This document shows positions 5,088 through 20,734 of a DNA stretch of 64,000 nucleotides, in pieces; the stretch's first letter is position 1; every line of letters starts with the position of its first letter. The notes beneath the pieces are model-generated. The model was given only the letters and a program-made list of their open reading frames with translations, was not told where the DNA came from and did not search any database. The stretch is from Medicago truncatula (taxonomy: Eukaryota > Streptophyta > Magnoliopsida > Fabales > Fabaceae), in the NCBI RefSeq assembly GCF_003473485.1, contig NC_053046.1, positions 11,046,001-11,110,000 on the forward strand, written 5' to 3'. The position numbers and the translations under genes are program-made.

Positions 5088-6779
5088 GTAATAAAGGAAC
5101 GAGAAAAAATATTCATATTGAGTATGATATGTAAAAAAAAAATGAAGTACAGATGTGGGAAGAAACAACAAAAATATATTGCACATAAGAATCATGTTTT
5201 TTTGCGAAGTCATATTCTCTTATCAAACATAATCAAGCATGTATCATGATTAATATGCATTTCAGTTTATCATCTGAATAATGACAATTATGATCAATTG
5301 ATCATTTTCAACAATTTTTTAAAACGAGAGAAAATAATTCATTAGTGGAAGCGATGAAATCAGAGTCATTTGACACAATGTCAAAAATATTTCTCTCTTC
5401 AAAGATTTTCATGTTGAATATTTTTCTAAATATTTTCAATGGGTAAACATCTTTAAATGAATATGCAATATGATTTTCTCATTATAATAGAAATCAACTA
5501 CATGTATTTAGAATTTGGAAAACACACATGTTCATAATCAAGTATGTGTTTAAACTTATCTCTAAGTAAGTGTGCTTGTGTGAGTTATCTTAGGTACTTA
5601 TCTTTCAAGTTTTCATGCTTAAAAGAGATTCTAAACACATAAGATGAGTTTGAAGAGAAGTATTTATGCAACATATTTATGCACAAACATATACTAGTAT
5701 GCCATTGATGTTTATATCTATTTTTGTCTCCAAATTTTGCAAGTGCAACAAGGTAGACATTCAACAATGATTAAACAAAATATTCATGCCAAGAATATGT
5801 TCAATATTAGTTTAGGAACAAAATATGTAAATCCCTTTTTAGATCAATTTTGAATTTATTGTTAATATATTAACAATTCACACAATTATTCTCTTGTTAA
5901 ATATGATTTTTATTTTGTTGAAATCCTATCAACGATAAAACTCAATTAAAATATTCATATTGAAAGACATTGAATATGATTTTTAGATAAGTCATCAAAA
6001 ATCAATTCATGAAAATACATATGTAAGAATAACATATGACATATATTGTATCGAAATCATGATATTTTGATATTTTTCTTGTTCTAAATCTCATGTCTAT
6101 CATCCATTATGATTAAGAGACTAACTCATGGAGTTTTAGCGTATTAATGATCAGGGATATGTTTTCTATAAAAGATATAGAAAGACGTTTACATAACAAG
6201 ATATTGATTAATAATGCAATCAATATACATTTAAATTTTTGCCTAAGAAATATGAACTTACACAAGTGTTAATTCATTAGGCTTATACATGCAAATTTTA
6301 ATTGATCTTTGTGATGAGAACATTCTCAGCATCATAAAAAGTTCAAGAACAAATGATGCGTTTCTTTTGAAAATCTTTCAAAGATAAATCCTAAATTATG
6401 ATCCATTTAAAAACATGTTTGGAGAATGAAATTTTCATAATCCATGTTAACATATTTTCAAAAACCATTTTCAAAATATATCACTTAAGAATCAGGAAAT
6501 GAATATGTCAATGAGTAAACTATAACAAATTTTATGAACATCTTCAAATTTCATACAGTTATGAAATTTTATAATTAAGGTATTTTTATGATCCAATTCT
6601 AAGGCATATCATGATATGTCATCTTAAGAACAAATTTTAGATGAACCATTAAAAGTAAGAATGATTCAAGGTGCATTGTATGCGAACGCTCACTAATCAT
6701 AGGATTTACTCATACCCTGATATAAATCATCACTCACAAGTGTGCAAAAGTAAATGTGTGAAATGAATCAACAAGTTAA
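5088..6779. other. AT-rich intergenic region, no feature recognised
   Basis: About 1.7 kb of AT-rich sequence with many short stop-bounded frames. No protein similarity, RNA gene or convincing repeat boundary could be recognised on either strand. Confidence 0.4.
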
Positions 6780-13373: not shown

Positions 13374-13508
13374 AAGCTAAATTCTACTATTAAAAAGTCC
13401 TTGTATTTACTATTAAAAAGTTCACAAGTAAAATTTTCACTCAGTTAATAAAATAAACAGAGAAACTTTTACTGCAAGTGGTTTAATTCTACAAGAGCTT
13501 AATTTATA

Positions 13509-13651
13509 GAGAATTGTTGTTCCCACATATAGTATGGCTGTGCCACACGAGTAAAATACCAAAATGCCCTTCGGCAGTTAACTGCCGAAGTTTTAAGTAA
13601 ACCGGCGGCAGCAAACTACCAAGGATTTCCTCGGTAGTTAACTGCCGAGGA
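13509..13651 (+). repeat. Left terminal inverted repeat of the MULE
   Basis: About 143 bases inverted relative to 20265-20407, with roughly seven differences. It contains one perfect (13572-13587) and one near-perfect (13632-13647) copy of the palindrome cggcagttaactgccg. It may also act as promoter for the plus-strand ORF at 14115, as MULE TIRs commonly do. Confidence 0.9.
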
Positions 13652-14114
13652 AATCCTGCCCTACAAAATCTGGCAGAATCTCCTCTCCTCTCATACATTA
13701 TCTCAATAATTTCTTCAAATTTCTCTCAAACTCTCTCTAAAAAACACACCCAAATCCAACCAACTTTTTTCAACAAAATCACAAGTAAGTAATTATAATG
13801 CTATTAACTTACATTTTAGTTGTTATAAATGTTTTGGTTTTTTAGTTTTTGAGTACATTTATTATTTGTTAGTAGATTTACATGTTATAATTAATTTGTA
13901 GGCTATATGTTAGTTGATTAATGTTGTTAAAATATTTGCATGATGTTTATGTTATATGATTAATTTTTTTATTTTAGTAAGAGTATATGATTTATAATTT
14001 TAGGGTTATTTTTATGAATTTTAGGGTATAATGTGCACATCAAGTGTTCGATGAAATGTTTGAATGAGTTTTTGATTCATTGTTTTTAGTTTCTTATTGT
14101 GTAGATTAAAAACA

Positions 14115-14462
14115 ATGGCCGGATGGATCGACGTTCATGCGCAATTCAACGGCGGAGAACCTCAGAGGTTGAAGGTTCGGTGCCTTGGTGTAACGTTAAG
14201 AGGTCTCAAGGATAAACTGACTGAATTCAACCAAGGAGTCAACCCCAAAGACACAAGGATGGTGGAACACGTTTGGTATAAACGTCCAACGCTCGACGAG
14301 GGGAGAGTATCATTCACTTGGGTGGAATTAACGAACGACGAAAACGTCACGACCATGTTTTGGGAGCACAGCATGTTCCAGTGGATCGATATGCGGGTGA
14401 AGTTGGTTAGATCAACTGAAGATATCATCGAAAGTTTGATTCCGCCAGAAGATCGTCATTAG
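14115..14462 (+). CDS. MULE accessory ORF, PB1-like / MuDR N-terminal domain, 115 aa
   Basis: Reads MAGWIDVHAQFNGGEPQRLK through to SLIPPEDRH. The start at 14115 is the first ATG, and the frame is open with good codon quality. The pattern (short beta strands, a GVTLRGLKDKL helix, a DEGRVSFTWVELTNDENV segment, then MRVKLVRS) resembles the ubiquitin/PB1-like N-terminal module found before the transposase in many plant MuDR-type proteins. Here it is a separate gene on the opposite strand from the transposase. A diverged relative is encoded at 16174-16518 on the minus strand. It might act in multimerisation or as a partner of the transposase; that role is inferred. Confidence 0.7.
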   Translation: MAGWIDVHAQFNGGEPQRLKVRCLGVTLRGLKDKLTEFNQGVNPKDTRMVEHVWYKRPTLDEGRVSFTWVELTNDENVTTMFWEHSMFQWIDMRVKLVRSTEDIIESLIPPEDRH

Positions 14463-14472
14463 TTAGGGTAAG

Positions 14473-14802
14473 GTGCATTCCAACCACAACAATTGTCTTC
14501 CTTTGAATGAGATAAATTCAAACCTGCCAAACAACAGGACTCGAGCATTTCGCTCGGCATTCATGTTTTTCCTTTGAAAAGATTAAATTCTTGTTAGGCT
14601 GGTTTAGATGTAGGTATTAAGTGTGAAGGAATGAACCTCATTTCGTTGGCACTTGAATACCAGCGTCTAAAGCACGCCTAACAAAAATTTATTCTTTTCA
14701 AAGGAAAACATGAATGCCGGGTGAAATGCTTGAGTCCTGTTGTTTTGCAGGTTTGAATTTATCCCATTCAAAGGTAACACAATTGTTGTGGTTGGAATGC
14801 AC
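14473..14802. repeat. Long inverted repeat 1 (hairpin-forming, 330 bp) inside the MULE
   Basis: The two arms (about 160 bases each, centre near 14637) are close to 90% complementary by eye. The hairpin opens with gtgcattccaacc and closes with ggttggaatgcac. It starts 10 bases after the stop of the PB1-like ORF, so a read-through transcript would fold into a long, nearly perfect RNA stem. Such stems are typical Dicer-like substrates in plants. No protein is encoded. Confidence 0.8.
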
Positions 14803-15037
14803 ATTCCAACTGCAACAATTGTCTTACCCTGGATGGGGCAATTCAAACTTGTTAATTGGCAGGACTCCAGTATTCGATGAGCATCTTGGACAATGGTATT
14901 CAAGTGTCAAAGAATGCACCTCATTCTTTTGACACTTGAATACCATCGTTCAAGATGCTTATCGAATACTGGAGTCCTGCTGCTTAGCAAGTTTGAATTT
15001 GCCCCATTCAGTGGTAAGATGATTGTTGCAGCTGGAA
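14803..15037. repeat. Long inverted repeat 2 (hairpin-forming, 235 bp), paralogous to repeat 1
   Basis: Arms of about 115 bases centred near 14920, roughly 90% complementary. It directly abuts the first hairpin. The arms are related to those of hairpin 1 (shared attccaac..caacaattgtc, aattcaaac, caggactc), so the two arose by duplication of one foldback. The arrangement resembles a young microRNA- or siRNA-generating locus. Confidence 0.8.
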
Positions 15038-15248
15038 GGAAAATTTCAGAATCTAATGTGTAATGCAATGTAATGTGATAACATATATTTTGTTTTGAAT
15101 GGAACAATAATTATCTTATTTTGTTTTCAAATTTATTTATTCCAAATGCAATTTTATTTTAAATACCATAATGTCAAACAAAATGTGCGCGACAGAAAAA
15201 TAAAACATAAAAAAATCCAAAACAATTAGGCATTAAAAGCCATTACAT

Positions 15249-15506
15249 TCATTCTTCCTCGTCACACAAATCAATCGGCTTGTCCGCTACAGTCCCTGCG
15301 GTACCTTGTTTTGGTTGAGGACCGAAATAGCATGTCCTCCCGCTCCTCCTCAACCTCGAGTGATTGTACACTGGCACCTTCAAACCATTCTTTTTTTCGG
15401 AACCATCGCAAACAATTCCATGCCACGTCATAGGAGATTTTTCTTTTTTCTTCTCATCACCATGAACGTTACCCTGATTCTGATTCTGAGACATATCTAC
15501 ATTCAA
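15249..15506 (-). CDS. Small MULE-internal ORF, 85 aa, unknown
   Basis: Begins MNVDMSQNQNQGNVHGDEKKK and ends PIDLCDEEE. It is hydrophilic, with a basic middle (NHSRLRRSGRTCYFG) and an acidic end. Upstream, at 15811-15886, lies a cluster of three copies of the MULE palindrome, which suggests its own promoter. It could equally be one exon of a longer gene. No family is recognised. Confidence 0.4.
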   Translation of the reverse strand: MNVDMSQNQNQGNVHGDEKKKEKSPMTWHGIVCDGSEKKNGLKVPVYNHSRLRRSGRTCYFGPQPKQGTAGTVADKPIDLCDEEE

Positions 15507-15810
15507 AATAAAAAGGCGATCAATTCAACCTATACTAACCTAAACTATCCTAACAATTCTAACCTAAACTATCCTAAAATATCATAAAATCAACATAATC
15601 GAACCTATGTAATCGAAATTTAACAAAAAATAACATACAATTCGACCACAAAGCAACAATGCAATAGGATTCAAAAAACTTACTTGTTTTTGTGATTGAA
15701 ATTGGCTTGTAATGACTTAAAATGATTCGAAATCGCAACTTTGATACTCAAAAACGCAACAATGGAGTTTTGGAAACTCCTATGTTGTGTTGTTCTTATA
15801 ACAATTTCCT

Positions 15811-15886
15811 CGGCAGTTAACTCCCGAGGATTTCCTCGGCAGTTAACTGCCGCCGGTTGCCTTCAAACTTCGGCAGTTAACTGCCG
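15811..15886. promoter_or_regulatory. Internal palindrome cluster 1 of the MULE
   Basis: Three copies of cggcagttaactgccg (15811-15826 with one mismatch, 15837-15852 and 15871-15886 perfect), arranged as in the TIRs with the same ccggcgg spacer read on the other strand. It lies upstream of the minus ORF at 15249-15506. It is best read as a repeated binding site for the element's own protein or a host factor. Confidence 0.55.
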
Positions 15887-16173
15887 AGGAAAACTGATTA
15901 TGCAGACAGTGGGTTCTGCATAATTCTAGACATTTCCAAGCCATTTTTTCGACCAGTTTTTACCTGTAATTAAACCAGACAATTTCCAAAGGCTAAATAA
16001 TTCATACAATATTGAAACTCGGTCATAATCAAGATAAATGCAATATCTTTTACAATTGTTCATAATTAAATTAAACCGACATTTTGGTTAACATTAAACA
16101 AACGTTTGAAATTCATCAAAACATTACAAAGTCCATAATTAAACTACTCATCACACATCATTAAATTAAATCC

Positions 16174-16518
16174 CTACTTACATTCAACGCAATTACATAT
16201 GAAACGAACATACATATATAATATATTATCTTCCACCATATTCCGAAACATAAATCCGACGTCGCCGTCGTCGCGAATAAGCAAAGGCATATAGCTTGCC
16301 GTTTTCCATGCGTATTCATCTCTATCTTCTCCTAGGTTTATGCAAGGCATTTGACCAAACAAGTGACGTGTATATTGATTTTCACCAAGATGCTCAAAAT
16401 AAGTGTTAAGTTGTGCCTTCAAATTGTCAAGAGAGTCCGTCGACGTTATCATAACCTTAACCGTCTTTTTAAACGCGGAGTACCTAACCCGACCTTCAAT
16501 TTGTGCAACCTCAGACAT
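16174..16518 (-). CDS. Second MULE accessory ORF, PB1-like, 114 aa
   Basis: Reads MSEVAQIEGRVRYSAFKKTV to ...YVRFICNCVECK. It shares the layout of the plus-strand ORF at 14115: a strand, a SLDNLKAQLNTYF helix matching TLRGLKDKLTEF, an EDRDEYAWKTASYMPLLIRDDGDVG block matching EGRVSFTWVELTNDENV, and a final hydrophobic strand. The two are therefore probable paralogues in opposite orientation within one element. Its function is presumably shared; no experimental role is known to me. Confidence 0.6.
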   Translation of the reverse strand: MSEVAQIEGRVRYSAFKKTVKVMITSTDSLDNLKAQLNTYFEHLGENQYTRHLFGQMPCINLGEDRDEYAWKTASYMPLLIRDDGDVGFMFRNMVEDNILYMYVRFICNCVECK

Positions 16519-16806
16519 GTCTCACTTGAAATTTTTTGTAACAAAAGAATCATATATTAGAACAAAATTAAATGGAATGTAATAACGAATAAATGAAATG
16601 CGTAAACATTAAAAAGCTATAAATAAGTATTGCATTATTTTCACCACATAAAAGTCATATTATCATATATATATATCAATATAAATTACATAATGTTAGT
16701 TATATATTGGCCACCAAAAAATTGGCGTTACAATTTCGACCCCAAAAAATACATCGGTGTAATTTCTACCAAAAAAAAGAACTAACACCGACAAAAAAAT
16801 CACTCA

Positions 16807-16974
16807 TTAAAGGCCAAGTGATTGGAGAAGATCAAGTGACATAGAATCTTCCTCATCTTCCACAATAACTTCAAATTGTTGCTTTGGTTTTTCGGGAGTG
16901 TCCAACAAAATAGGCGCCGCGTTGTTTGACTCCTTTTGTGGTTTGGACGGTTTGTTTCCACTTTCAATAGCCAT
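16807..16974 (-). CDS. Small acidic ORF following the transposase, 55 aa
   Basis: MAIESGNKPSKPQKESNN... ending SLDLLQSLGL. The ATG is 6 bases beyond the transposase stop. The C terminus is acidic with a hydrophobic tail (EDEEDSMSLDLLQSLGL), a composition seen in activation or protein-docking peptides. It is too short to assign and may be a read-through tail or an artefact. Confidence 0.35.
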   Translation of the reverse strand: MAIESGNKPSKPQKESNNAAPILLDTPEKPKQQFEVIVEDEEDSMSLDLLQSLGL

Positions 16975-16980
16975 GAGCTT

Positions 16981-19764
16981 TCAGAACAACTCATGTTGAT
17001 CCAAATACTCATCTTCCCAAGTCACCGCATCTTCTTTCTTGTGATTGTGCCACTCCGTAGATGATGGAGGTAGTGGACAACCATTCTTCAAGGAAATAAG
17101 CACAAAATGATTTGGAATTGCCCCAAGGCACAAGATGGGAGTTTTTTGATTACCCGGCGGTGGTGGCCCTCTTAGTGGGAAAAACGATTCCGACTTTCCA
17201 ACTTCAAGATTTGTCAACACTACCACACACATTTTGTAATAGTTAGCAACAAGGTGTCCCATGTCCGGAAAAGTCAACCACTTATCAACAAGATGTGCAC
17301 AAGTTTTTGTATTTGCGGGAGGATGTAATCCGTTTAAAATGTAGTTATAACGATCCTCACCCGCAAATACTTCAACATAATCATCTCTATGATCCATCAA
17401 CTCTTGAATAAGATGTGTACGGATCATGAGATGATTTTTTTCGGTCAAGCCCATGAACTCGGCTATAGCCCGAAATCCGCAATGTCCGTCGCCGATAACA
17501 TCCACCACTTTTTCAATAAATGGAAGCATGAAGCGTGGCATATAATCAATAGGACGCATAACCGGGATAGCCTTAGGCTTTGGATACCGAGTAGGTGGTG
17601 AAAGTGGGGAAAATGATGTTTTACCAAGACGAGCACCTTTTTTCCTTTTATACGATGATGTTGTTGGTGATGGTGACGGTTGGCTATCCGGATTTTGGGA
17701 ATCAACAACCTCCCAAGAAGAAGGGATCCGACTAGTCGATGTAATTTTTCCTTTAGACCTCGCAATGTCGACTTTTTTCTTTGCTCCCTTGGTTGGTACT
17801 TTTTGTGGTGGTGGAGACATCAAGGTGGTTTCAGGAAATGCCAACTGCCGCAAACCCTCTTTGACCTCAAGCTTCATTTGGAAAGGGAGTTTCTTTAGAC
17901 GTTCAACAATAGCCTTCAACTCAACCTCGACACAAAAAGCTACTTCATTACTTTCTTCACCCATAGATAACCTAAGCCAATGGTGGTATATCTCATCCAA
18001 TAAAATTGGCTTCTCTTGAAGGAGTTTAGTAGCAATTTCGCATGCACATGGTAGCCCGTAAGATGTCCTTTGCACACAACCACAAATGTCATTGTCCATG
18101 CACAATGTTTCCCTACAACGTGTCTCTTCCAAAGCAATGTTGTCCAAGGCATATCTAGACACATGACCACCTAACCCCGAGTACAAGCTGACATCTTTGA
18201 ATCTATGTTCCAACACGCAAACACTGTGACCAAAGGATGTTTGTATAGCGGTGAATTGAAGCAACAACATGTCATGTATTTTCTCCCAACAAGTACCCAA
18301 ATCACCCACACTATTGTCCAAGTATTTCTTCAACAAAGCATGGGCCGATTTGACTCTGTTTGTGGTCCTACAACCAAGATGCAACACATGGTCTGTCCAT
18401 GCCCTCACAATTTTTTCCTTCACTTCATTCAAGGTGGTCATGGCATAATCTACAAAAATTGGGAAATCACTACATGAATCTTTGAACTCCACTAATGCAT
18501 TTGCATATAACTGTTGAGTGGGCGATTCAACCATAGCTTTCCATGTCTTCATTATCTTCTTCACCACATCGCGATTGCTCACCTCTTTCCCATCCTTTTT
18601 AAAGCCCAAAGGATATTTACAATCCAAGACACACCTTTGTTTAACATTAGCTTGCACATGAAAATAACAATTCATTGCATAACTTTCCGGAAAAACATGT
18701 GCAACCGCTTTCATCAAAGACATATCCCTATCGGTAACAATCACCTTAGGCATATTCATCTTTGACGAAAGAAGTTTACGCAACATCTTTAAAACCCAAA
18801 CAAAGTTTTCTTCTTTCTCATGTGTCATAAATCCAAACCCAACCGAATATGTCAAATCGGTTGAAGTCACCCCAACTACCTCAAACATTGGCATCCTATA
18901 CATGTTGGTTTTGTACGTCGAGTCCATAACCAAAACCGTTGGAAAATTGTTAAACAACTTAATGGATGTTGGATGAGCCCAAAAAATATCTTCAATAGTA
19001 TTACTTTCAAGTTGTGTTCTTGAGTAATAAGTATACTTGTGCTCCTCCAACTTCGAGATTAGATATTGCAACGGTTTCTTGTCACCCCTATTTGCCTTCC
19101 ATATTTGTTGACGTTCATTGTACACTTGCTTCACATTTGTCATGCAATGTGGTCTTTGGTTCTTCAAATGTATCAAAATATTTCTTGGAAGCATCTTGCT
19201 TTTTGTCAAGTCACGTACAATCTTCTTGTCGTCCTCCTTTAATCTACCGGCAAGAATGTGTCATTCTAAAGCCGGCTCCATGGGATGGTTGTGAACTCCA
19301 TTAAGAATGTTCAATCCCCATTCTTTTGTTTGCTTACTTTGATATCCACTAATCATGAATAAGCAACCGCATTTTCTTGACCCCGTTCCCGCATGCTTCG
19401 GTTTTTTTTCCAGAACTATGTGACTTCCACTCCTTTCACACACTAGTCGGAACATTGGATTGATCAAGCTTGATCTTTGTGTGACAATTGTAAATCCCGC
19501 CTTATTTGCTTGTCGACGCACCCACTCAAGCAATTCATCTCTATTTTTCGACTTAACGTCGTCTGAAAAAAACCTAGCCGTGTCGACCTCGTGGGGTTGA
19601 AGTGGGAGTACACCGGAGCCGCCAACATACTTTGAAGCTTCAACATGGACGGAAGCTCCATCTATGTTTGTTTTCGCTTCAACATTAGGCGGTTTGACAT
19701 CTCCGGAATTTTCGACAAAATTTTGTTTTGTCTCTCCCGGAACATCTTTCGCATTCTCTACCAT
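16981..19764 (-). CDS. MULE transposase with FAR1-type DNA-binding, catalytic, SWIM-like and OTU protease domains (one in-frame stop)
   Basis: One frame of 928 codons interrupted by a TGA at codon 168 (19261-19263). Residues about 75-165 are a FAR1/WRKY-GCM1-like zinc domain ending in NGVHNH. Residues about 270-380 hold the MULE catalytic core, with VLVMDSTYK (first Asp) and VIVTDRDMSL (second Asp), followed by a YAMNCYFHVQ segment. Near residue 565 a SWIM-like Cys cluster (CGCVQRTSYGLPCAC) has Cys where His is usual. After a Pro/Ser-rich linker, residues about 755-905 form an OTU-type cysteine protease module, with GDGHCGFRAIA (Cys near 762) and the His motif IPNHFVLI (near 885). The mature role would be cut-and-paste transposition plus, possibly, deubiquitination. 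Apart from the stop the frame is open, so the break looks recent (GGA to TGA is the simplest change). Confidence 0.85.
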
Positions 19765-19927
19765 TACTATAATTATACAACATATAAATATGAATTAACA
19801 ACTACATAATGTATAAACATCAATGCCATGATGAATTAAAAGAAAAAAAAAGAAAAAAAAACAAAAGAAAAAAAATTTGAAAATTTGGCAGTAGCTGCCA
19901 TTTTTTCGTTGTGAAAATTTTTCACAA

Positions 19928-20015
19928 GAGTTTCTCGGCACCTTGCTACCGAGGTTTTCCTCGGCACTATACTACCGAAGTTTCCCTCGGCAGTTAACTG
20001 CCGAGGATTCCCATG
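19928..20015. promoter_or_regulatory. Internal palindrome cluster 2, upstream of the transposase
   Basis: One perfect palindrome (19988-20003) and two diverged versions (ctcggcaccttgctaccgag and ctcggcactatactaccgaa) lie about 165-240 bases before the transposase ATG. This places the repeated motif in the probable transposase promoter or 5' leader, a layout suited to feedback by the transposase on its own gene. That function is inferred. Confidence 0.5.
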
Positions 20016-20264
20016 ACAGGGTTCTACGTAACTCACGTAGATACCCATAAAATAATACAAAAATCAATCAACTAAAATGCACAATACCTGTTTTTTTACG
20101 TCAAATGTGTGTTGATACCTCCTATGTTTGATGCTTGAATGATTTTGGATCAAGGATTGATGAAAAAAAATGGATTTTTGGATTGGAATGGAGATGAAAA
20201 ATGAAGTTGATGAAGAAAATAGAGTGTAGGGGGAGCAGGTGGCTATTTCATCTGATGAAACATA

Positions 20265-20407
20265 TCCTCGGCAATTAACTACCGAGGAAATCCTCGGTAG
20301 TTTGCTGCCGCCGGTTTACTCAAAACTTCGGCAGTTAACTGCCGAAGGACATTTTGGTATTTTACTCATGTGGCACAGCCATACTATATGTGGGAACAGC
20401 AATTCTC
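20265..20407 (-). repeat. Right terminal inverted repeat of the MULE
   Basis: Inverse of 13509-13651 over about 143 bases. It carries a perfect palindrome at 20329-20344 and a diverged one at 20269-20284. The outer end reads ...caattctc and is followed at once by the 9-bp duplication taatttata (20408-20416). Confidence 0.9.
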
Positions 20408-20734
20408 TAATTTATACTCTTCATTGCCACTTTTATTGAAGTAAAACACACGGAAGGTGGTGATGTTACTTTCAAGTAGAGAAAAGAATATTATCCTTAT
20501 TGCACATCTGCTTTTGTTTGTGTGTTTGTTTTTTTTGGTATGTTTATCAATTGTAATTAATTAATGAACCAGTAACCACATTTTTGTTTCCATTGTGATC
20601 AAACCAAGAAAACGGGTCATAAACTTTGATAATGAAAGCTTCATTCGTCATTAGCCGGCTTGTCACTTATAAGGTTCAATTATATCACTGTTACCATTTA
20701 TTTCTTTCTCTCTAGCTTCACATGATCATTGATC

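What the first reader, a model, noticed from the sequence alone, without database searches (positions are those of the whole stretch)
16981..19764. Transposase fused to an OTU-type cysteine protease
The MULE transposase frame continues past its catalytic core and SWIM-like cluster into a domain with the OTU Cys motif GDGHCGFRAIA (Cys near residue 762) and His motif IPNHFVLI (near 885). Other plant MULEs (Kaonashi type) carry a Ulp1 SUMO protease, so capture of a ubiquitin-family protease appears to be a repeated theme. A fused OTU domain could strip ubiquitin from the transposase itself or from host silencing factors.
Basis: partly seen in the sequence, partly recalled or inferred. Interest (0 to 1): 0.72.

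Follow-up and report, generated by a model that had tools for sequence, protein, structure and literature searches.

The report
Plant transposase fused to OTU-like protease
A plant jumping gene makes one protein that joins its DNA-moving enzyme to a domain that looks like a ubiquitin-removing protease; the copy here is broken, but relatives in the same genome share the design, some with the whole frame open, so the protease part probably helps the element to move or to survive.

Summary
The fusion is real, but this copy is dead. On the minus strand a FAR1/AFT-type DNA-binding region, a MULE transposase and an OTU-like domain share one frame inside a 6,899-bp element (13509-20407) with long terminal inverted repeats and a perfect 9-bp target duplication. 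The window copy has two in-frame TGA stops and has lost a conserved transposase acid.

The genome holds at least 150 matches to the OTU part. Five of 20 fetched close copies have an unbroken 995-codon frame. Four subfamilies, by my grouping, share the architecture. An OTU match lies within 3 kb downstream of 33 of 43 MULE matches of this type and 0 of 107 others. Cys and His boxes persist; dN/dS between subfamilies A and B is 0.21-0.25 in the OTU part, below the transposase's. The domain is a divergent OTU: below Pfam's cut-off, but a family profile finds OTUD5 at E 1.7e-4. No usable fold was obtained.

Ginger1 transposases carry OTU and some MULEs Ulp1; my searches found no OTU-MULE report. 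New variant of a known kind; deubiquitinase function is inferred.

The parts
13509..20407 (-). Whole mobile element (MULE), long hybrid form, 6,899 bp
   Evidence: Terminal inverted repeats and perfect 9-bp target duplication
20408..20416 (.). Target-site duplication TATAAATTA (left, in sense of the element)
13500..13508 (.). Target-site duplication TATAAATTA (right)
20262..20407 (.). Terminal inverted repeat, left
   Evidence: 92.5% match to the right end over 161 aligned columns, which include 13 bases outside the repeat (duplication and flank)
13509..13654 (.). Terminal inverted repeat, right
19276..19548 (-). DNA-binding region, FAR1/AFT type
   Evidence: PF08731 AFT E 9e-08 (over cut-off); PF03101 FAR1 E 4.1e-05 (24.7 bits, below cut-off 28.1)
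19261..19263 (-). In-frame TGA between DNA-binding region and transposase
   Evidence: same codon is TGA in L027 and L028, sense in the other 18 fetched close copies
18646..18936 (-). MULE transposase (RNase H-like) domain
   Evidence: PF10551 E 1.8e-26
18349..18351 (-). Position of the putative third catalytic acid: Lys here, Glu in the 20 other fetched close copies
   Evidence: assignment as the E of DDE is recalled from the motif; spacing D-64-D-127-E
17074..17556 (-). OTU-like cysteine-protease domain (limits set by me)
   Evidence: PF02338 sub-threshold in this copy; family profile vs OTUD5 structures E 1.7e-4
17479..17490 (-). Asp-Gly-His-Cys: Asp 17488-17490 and nucleophile Cys 17479-17481
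   Evidence: Cys in 45 of 47 and Asp in 44 of 47 independent places covered
17107..17109 (-). His of the OTU His box (IPNHFV)
   Evidence: His in 41 of 45 independent places covered, L036 (rearranged) left out
16981..16983 (-). In-frame TGA after the OTU-like domain; the family's frame runs on
16807..16980 (-). C-terminal tail (57 codons and stop) beyond the premature stop
   Evidence: the same tail ends the 995-codon frames of L009-L013
16174..16518 (-). Second ORF (114 aa), no Pfam match at E up to 1; part of the OTU-MULE
   Evidence: 150 matches scored in the genome, of 393 candidates
15249..15506 (-). ORF3 (85 aa), from the right end of a second element type
14115..14462 (+). 115-aa ORF, counterpart of an ORF of the PMD-carrying element
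13569..15886 (.). Right-hand segment shared with the PMD-carrying element (91.6% to L037)

Best explanation
This is a defective copy of a recently mobile Mutator-like family whose transposase carries a divergent OTU-like cysteine-protease domain at its C-terminus. Shown: the order DNA-binding/MULE/OTU-like/tail in one open frame without an intron in intact copies, the MULE ends and target duplications, recurrence of the arrangement in diverged subfamilies, and constraint on the OTU part between subfamilies. Inferred: the protein binds the element's ends through the FAR1-type region and the OTU-like part removes ubiquitin (or a relative) from proteins held there, either the transposase itself, so that it survives proteasomal turnover, or ubiquitinated histones and silencing proteins, so that the element stays expressed and mobile. 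I think these two sub-versions about equally likely. The triad would be Asp(C-3)/Cys/His, as in OTUD5 (recalled), because the residue two after the His is Val, Leu or Ala in most rows, not Asp or Asn.
For: Intact frames: 5 of 20 fetched close copies have 995 open codons from the DNA-binding part to the tail (copies were chosen in part for open frames). Target duplications: perfect in 13 of 20 fetched copies and in the window. Divergent copies: L029-L035, 7 of 7, show transposase plus OTU pieces in order; of 12 further divergent OTU places, 10 show clear transposase homology upstream, L058 only its C-terminal edge and linker, L060 none. Downstream OTU within 3 kb for 33 of 43 MULE matches of this type, 0 of 107 others. 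Catalytic-box residues kept. OTU dN/dS 0.21-0.25 in five A-B pairs, bootstrap ranges within 0.11-0.41; transposase 0.31-0.45. Profile match to OTUD5 E 1.7e-4; profile match to a host OTU gene E 1.9e-4 but only 47% probability, aligning the Cys boxes.
Against: No member examined reaches Pfam's OTU cut-off of 23.3 bits (highest 21.4 bits, C6:38928150). Sequence evidence covers only the Cys half; the His box is a motif match. The single-sequence structure prediction failed (mean pLDDT 38.2). Constraint is seen only between subfamilies: between B copies the OTU dN/dS is about 0.75 to above 2 (for example 0.039/0.052, 0.044/0.030, 0.063/0.026), and within A the counts are small and mixed. The five A-B comparisons share one A copy and related B copies, so they are not independent, and dS is near 1. 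His is missing in four of seven B copies. No activity, expression or mobility data exist here.
Confidence: 0.6

Rival explanations
1. The OTU-like part is a non-catalytic fold kept for binding (dimerisation, ubiquitin or chromatin binding), a pseudo-protease.
For: Divergent from Pfam's OTU model; mostly no Asp/Asn two after the His; His missing in 4 of 7 B copies.
Against: Cys in 45 of 47 and Asp in 44 of 47 independent places, His in 41 of 45. Three of the four B copies without His (L031, L034, L035) change frame or carry stops elsewhere; the fourth (L049) was not examined further.
Confidence: 0.18
2. The OTU-like part is a self-processing protease that releases the transposase from its C-terminal part, not a deubiquitinase.
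For: It lies near the C-terminus behind a Pro/Ser-rich linker; OTU-type proteases that process viral polyproteins are known (recalled).
Against: I saw no sign of a cleavage site; not tested.
Confidence: 0.1
3. A passenger fragment captured by the element (transduplication) with no role in it.
For: MULEs are known to capture host fragments (passages of PMC13317346 and PMC6431247).
Against: Same arrangement in diverged subfamilies and dN/dS about 0.21-0.25 between A and B; the four OTU-less relatives that I read look like deleted, truncated or rearranged derivatives.
Confidence: 0.05
4. Chance neighbour or frame accident in one copy.
For: The window copy has a stop in the frame.
Against: Open 995-codon frames elsewhere and 33 of 43 versus 0 of 107 association.
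Confidence: 0.01

Closest known systems
Ginger1 DNA transposons (C-terminal OTU or Ulp1 on the transposase), PMC2836005, passages seen
   Same: Transposase with a C-terminal OTU-like protease domain, TIRs, many copies
   Different: Ginger1 core is a Gypsy-like integrase, described in animals there; here the core is a MULE transposase in a plant
MULEs carrying Ulp1 (Kaonashi/KIU, VANDAL VANC-type genes; Mutator TPases with Ulp1), PMC13317346 and PMC2836005, passages seen
   Same: Mutator-like element with a ubiquitin-family protease; anti-silencing described for KIU-carrying VANDALs
   Different: The domain is Ulp1; KIU is a separate gene of non-TIR MULEs; here an OTU-like domain is fused to the transposase of a TIR element
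FAR1/FHY3/FRS host proteins (recalled; search listing of PMC6000157 seen)
   Same: FAR1-type DNA-binding region plus MULE domain
   Different: Domesticated host genes without TIRs and, as far as I recall, without an OTU domain
OTUD5/DUBA deubiquitinase (PDB 3pfy, 3tmo)
   Same: Best solved-structure match of the family profile over the Cys box and what follows
   Different: Match covers profile positions 15-70 only; no transposase
MuTAnT / AutoMuTAnT MULEs of Medicago truncatula (PMC4486113, passages seen)
   Same: Legume MULE with 9-nt target duplications
   Different: Transposase of five exons, 833 aa; TIR beginning GGGG; targets TA repeats; the word protease does not occur in the main text

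Membership tests
Mutator-like element (MULE) | MULE transposase domain (PF10551) | tested here: met
   E 1.8e-26, 92.9 bits, cut-off 27.6
Mutator-like element (MULE) | Long terminal inverted repeats | tested here: met
   about 146 bp, 20262-20407 and 13509-13654
Mutator-like element (MULE) | 9-bp target-site duplication | tested here: met
   Window perfect; 13 of 20 fetched copies perfect, 2 with one mismatch, 5 without a readable or matching pair
Mutator-like element (MULE) | DDE catalytic acids (assignment recalled) | tested here: met
   Met in 20 of 20 fetched close copies; in the window copy the third acid is Lys
OTU cysteine proteases (PF02338) | Reaches Pfam's curated score | tested here: not met
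   Highest score seen for this family 21.4 bits (C6:38928150) and 19.7 among the proteins scanned, cut-off 23.3; 9 of 11 members of A1 hit it at E up to 1, best E 0.0017. Hence filed as OTU-like, not as a Pfam member
OTU cysteine proteases (PF02338) | Asp-x-x-Cys box | tested here: met
   aligned with OTUD5 and OTUD3 and with a host OTU gene
OTU cysteine proteases (PF02338) | C-terminal His box in register | tested here: inconclusive
   Conserved NHF/EHF-type motif, but no profile alignment reached it
OTU cysteine proteases (PF02338) | OTU fold with aligned triad | tested here: inconclusive
   AlphaFold2 without alignment, mean pLDDT 38.2
OTU cysteine proteases (PF02338) | Deubiquitinase activity | not testable with these tools
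   needs protein
Ginger1 | Gypsy-like integrase core | tested here: not met
   No retroviral-type integrase core among the five families listed for the transposase piece; MULE instead
Kaonashi/KIU MULEs | Ulp1 (C48) domain | tested here: not met
   No Ulp1 match in the five window pieces scanned or in the 11 OTU rows
Kaonashi/KIU MULEs | Non-TIR ends | tested here: not met
   TIRs present

The most novel reading that the evidence does not exclude
A two-element mobile system: the OTU-fused transposase moves both its own element and a second element type with the same ends that carries a Plant Mobile Domain protein but, in the one example read, no visible transposase; the OTU part and the PMD protein together counter host silencing (ubiquitin-linked chromatin marks on one side, PMD-type silencing on the other).
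Probability: 0.2. Interest if true: 0.75.

Novelty: new variant of a known kind. Interest (0 to 1): 0.5.

Why it matters
Ulp1 in MULEs, OTU or Ulp1 in Ginger1 and OTU in Helitrons (passages of PMC2836005 and PMC6431247) suggest that removing ubiquitin-family tags helps transposons, but as far as I know no mechanism is settled. Here the protease-like domain is physically part of the transposase, in a family with open-frame, nearly identical copies, so its role could be tested directly. If it is a deubiquitinase, the element carries its own counter to turnover or silencing, and the family becomes a natural tool for locating ubiquitin-dependent control of transposons in plants.

Tried and rejected
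Relatives outside the genome: the search for related loci in genome contigs (8 pattern stretches, none confirmed) and viral contigs (no pattern match). Structure: single-sequence AlphaFold2 gave mean pLDDT 38; no fold search was made with it. BLASTP of the 114-aa ORF2 against the ORF2-like protein of the PMD element: no alignment, although the two look alike by eye. Within-family polymorphism by region: few changes, mixed result. PDB profile rows naming clostridial glucosylating toxins, a PDZ protein and an anion transporter (E 0.017 and worse, away from the Cys box): taken as chance, nothing fetched. Programmed TGA readthrough: rejected, since 18 of 20 other close copies have a sense codon at the first stop and none of the 20 has a stop at the second. 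Apparent OTU-less relatives: four of ten were read; all look like deleted, truncated or rearranged copies of this family (72-92% identity in the transposase piece), L064 still holding an OTU piece; for L062 and L065 a long insertion cannot be excluded, since only 2.4 kb was read.

Literature: nine searches. I saw no paper on an OTU domain in a plant MULE among the rows listed; some searches listed only 20 of 80, 15 of 771 and 15 of 16 papers. A word search of the main text of a broad MULE survey (PMC6446971) found no 'OTU', 'Ulp', 'protease' or 'peptidase'. The 2006 WRKY-GCM1 paper that may mention such fusions is not held, and no annotated plant protein database was searched, so priority is not settled.

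Full report
What is in the window. Minus-strand translation from ATG 19764 gives a DNA-binding region, then TGA at 19261-19263, then a 759-codon frame with the MULE domain and the OTU-like region, then TGA at 16981-16983, then 57 more codons in the same frame with a stop at 16807-16809. Pfam: AFT E 9e-08 and FAR1 E 4.1e-05 in the first piece; MULE E 1.8e-26, ZSWIM1-3 RNase H-like E 1e-14 and OTU E 0.02 (below cut-off) in the second.

Whose genome. The window lies in G000, 430 Mb in 42 contigs, unnamed. Eight large contigs of 43-65 Mb and this size fit Medicago truncatula (recalled, not tested).

Element ends. The reported span is only part of the element. Comparison with 20 fetched copies located both ends: 13509-20407, 6,899 bp, flanked by TATAAATTA on both sides. 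In the 20 fetched copies the 9-bp duplication is perfect in 13 (L009, L010, L011, L013, L014, L017-L020, L022, L023, L025, L028), has one mismatch in 2 (L012, L027), and is unreadable or unmatched in 5 (L015, L016, L021, L024, L026). The 14 of these 15 that are of the short form measure 4.5-4.7 kb.

Intact copies. The OTU region has at least 150 matches in the genome (625 candidates, 150 scored). Of the 20 fetched copies, which I chose partly for long open frames, 5 (L009-L013) have an unbroken 995-codon frame without introns; 13 of 20 have no in-frame stop, though some of these are frameshifted. Thirteen of 20 are 99.2-99.6% identical to another fetched copy over the gene, so the family moved recently.

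The window copy is dead. Besides the two stops, the residue aligned with Glu in the motif NRVESAH is Lys at 18349-18351; it is Glu in 20 of 20 other fetched close copies. That this Glu is the third DDE acid is recalled from the motif and the spacing. The first TGA is shared with L027 and L028, whose nearest fetched copies are others; recurrent change or gene conversion are both possible.

Is the domain an OTU? For it: a profile of 15 rows from four subfamilies finds OTUD5 (3pfy E 1.7e-4; 3tmo E 1.8e-4) and OTUD3 (4bou E 0.018) in the PDB, and aligns its Cys box with that of a host OTU gene (E 1.9e-4, probability 47%). OTU is the best Pfam hit for the four D members scanned (E 0.0012-0.0025) and is hit by 9 of 11 members of A1. 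Against: no member examined reaches the Pfam cut-off. A genome search with PF02338 gave 45 matches, 6 over the cut-off (one only with its neighbours in the frame), none of which is a place listed in the OTU-MULE searches. The aligned part is only the Cys half, other and unrelated PDB rows begin at E 0.017 in the same list, and the model is unusable. I therefore call it OTU-like.

Catalytic residues. Over 48 independent places (50 rows, two places counted twice there: L044/L050 and L042/L061), Cys is kept in 45 of 47 covered, the Asp three before it in 44 of 47, His in 41 of 45 covered (the rearranged copy L036 left out of all three). The close copies were picked by score, so their 21 of 21 is biased; the B, C and D rows carry the weight: Cys 24 of 26, Asp 23 of 26, His 20 of 24. 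Exceptions: Cys to Tyr in L051 and L055; Asp changed in L048, L052, L055; no His in L031, L034, L035, L049. As column conservation among B, C and D rows the three rank only 22nd, 40th and 51st of 157 (Cys, Asp, His), so they are well kept but not the best-kept positions.

Conserved architecture. Subfamilies are my grouping by identity. B (L029-L032, L034, L035) and C (L033) show transposase and OTU regions in order, most pieces at 44-62% identity. L036 is an internally deleted copy of A type. Of 12 further divergent places, 10 show clear transposase homology upstream, L058 only its C-terminal edge and linker, L060 none. L050 and L061 had been fetched before as short pieces.

Is OTU tied to one MULE clade? 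Among 150 scored MULE-domain matches (923 candidates), 43 have the 291-bp match typical of this family; 33 of those have an OTU match within 3 kb downstream, against 0 of 107 others; on the upstream side 1 of 43 and 0 of 107 (coordinates typed; all three lists are capped). Of the ten exceptions I read four.

Constraint. Against one intact A copy, five B copies give OTU dN/dS 0.214, 0.227, 0.247, 0.223 and 0.250, bootstrap ranges within 0.11-0.41; the transposase gives 0.31-0.45 and the DNA-binding part, readable in two, 0.47-0.48. Synonymous distances are 0.8-1.2 in these regions, so saturation is a concern. Between B copies the OTU ratio is about 0.75 to above 2, as expected for decaying copies; within A the counts are small: 0.44, 0.73 and 0.06 for changes in one, two to four, and five or more copies.

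How it may work. The FAR1-type region would place the protein at the TIRs; the OTU-like part would then act on ubiquitinated proteins there. Whether the target is the transposase or chromatin cannot be decided from sequence. [quoted passage not shown]

Second element type. The right third of the window element (13569-15886) matches, at 91.6%, an element elsewhere (L037/L038) that has the same end sequence and a perfect 9-bp duplication ATTCTTGTC, is 5,347 bp long, and encodes a Plant Mobile Domain protein (PF10536 E 4.7e-29), a 128-codon frame and ORF3; among its frames of 85 or more codons none looks like a transposase, though only three were scanned. The window element is thus most simply a hybrid of the two types; L020, L021 and L026 share at least part of the long form. 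PMD in MULEs is known (PMC5418596, passages).

Known or new. Transposase-OTU fusion as such is known in Ginger1; protease-bearing MULEs are known with Ulp1. The OTU-MULE fusion was not seen in nine searches of open papers (listed in Tried and rejected, some lists capped), but the library is partial and a key 2006 paper is not held. Verdict: new variant of a known kind, interest 0.5.

Noticed in passing
L037:1-7501 with L038; window 13569-15886: A 5,347-bp element with the same TIR ends and a perfect 9-bp target duplication carries a Plant Mobile Domain gene, a 128-codon frame and ORF3, no transposase seen; probably moved in trans. ORF3 has at least 150 matches in the genome (425 candidates, 150 scored).
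   Followed up: partly
L015:6040-6240: An OTU-MULE right end at 6065 is followed at 6091 by another left end; downstream lie frames that begin like those of the PMD gene of L037 (not scanned): perhaps two elements in tandem.
   Followed up: no
window:16174-16518 (-): A 114-aa second ORF without Pfam match is free of stops in many matches, including two beside OTU matches with five stops (C8:18606148 and C2:50057911); it may be under its own selection.
   Followed up: partly
window:19261-19263: The same TGA in three copies (window, L027, L028) that are not each other's nearest fetched copies: recurrent mutation, gene conversion or spread in trans.
   Followed up: partly
window:20729-21214 (+): A RING-H2 finger frame (ATL-like, recalled) begins about 320 bp from the element's left end; the insertion may lie in its promoter.
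   Followed up: no
window:35308-37195 (-): Leucine-rich-repeat and protein-kinase frames side by side, possibly a receptor-kinase gene that is broken or has an intron.
   Followed up: no
window:15804-15892, 19936-20010, 20262-20350: Palindromic CGGCAGTTAACTGCCG-type modules repeated inside and near the ends of the element.
   Followed up: no
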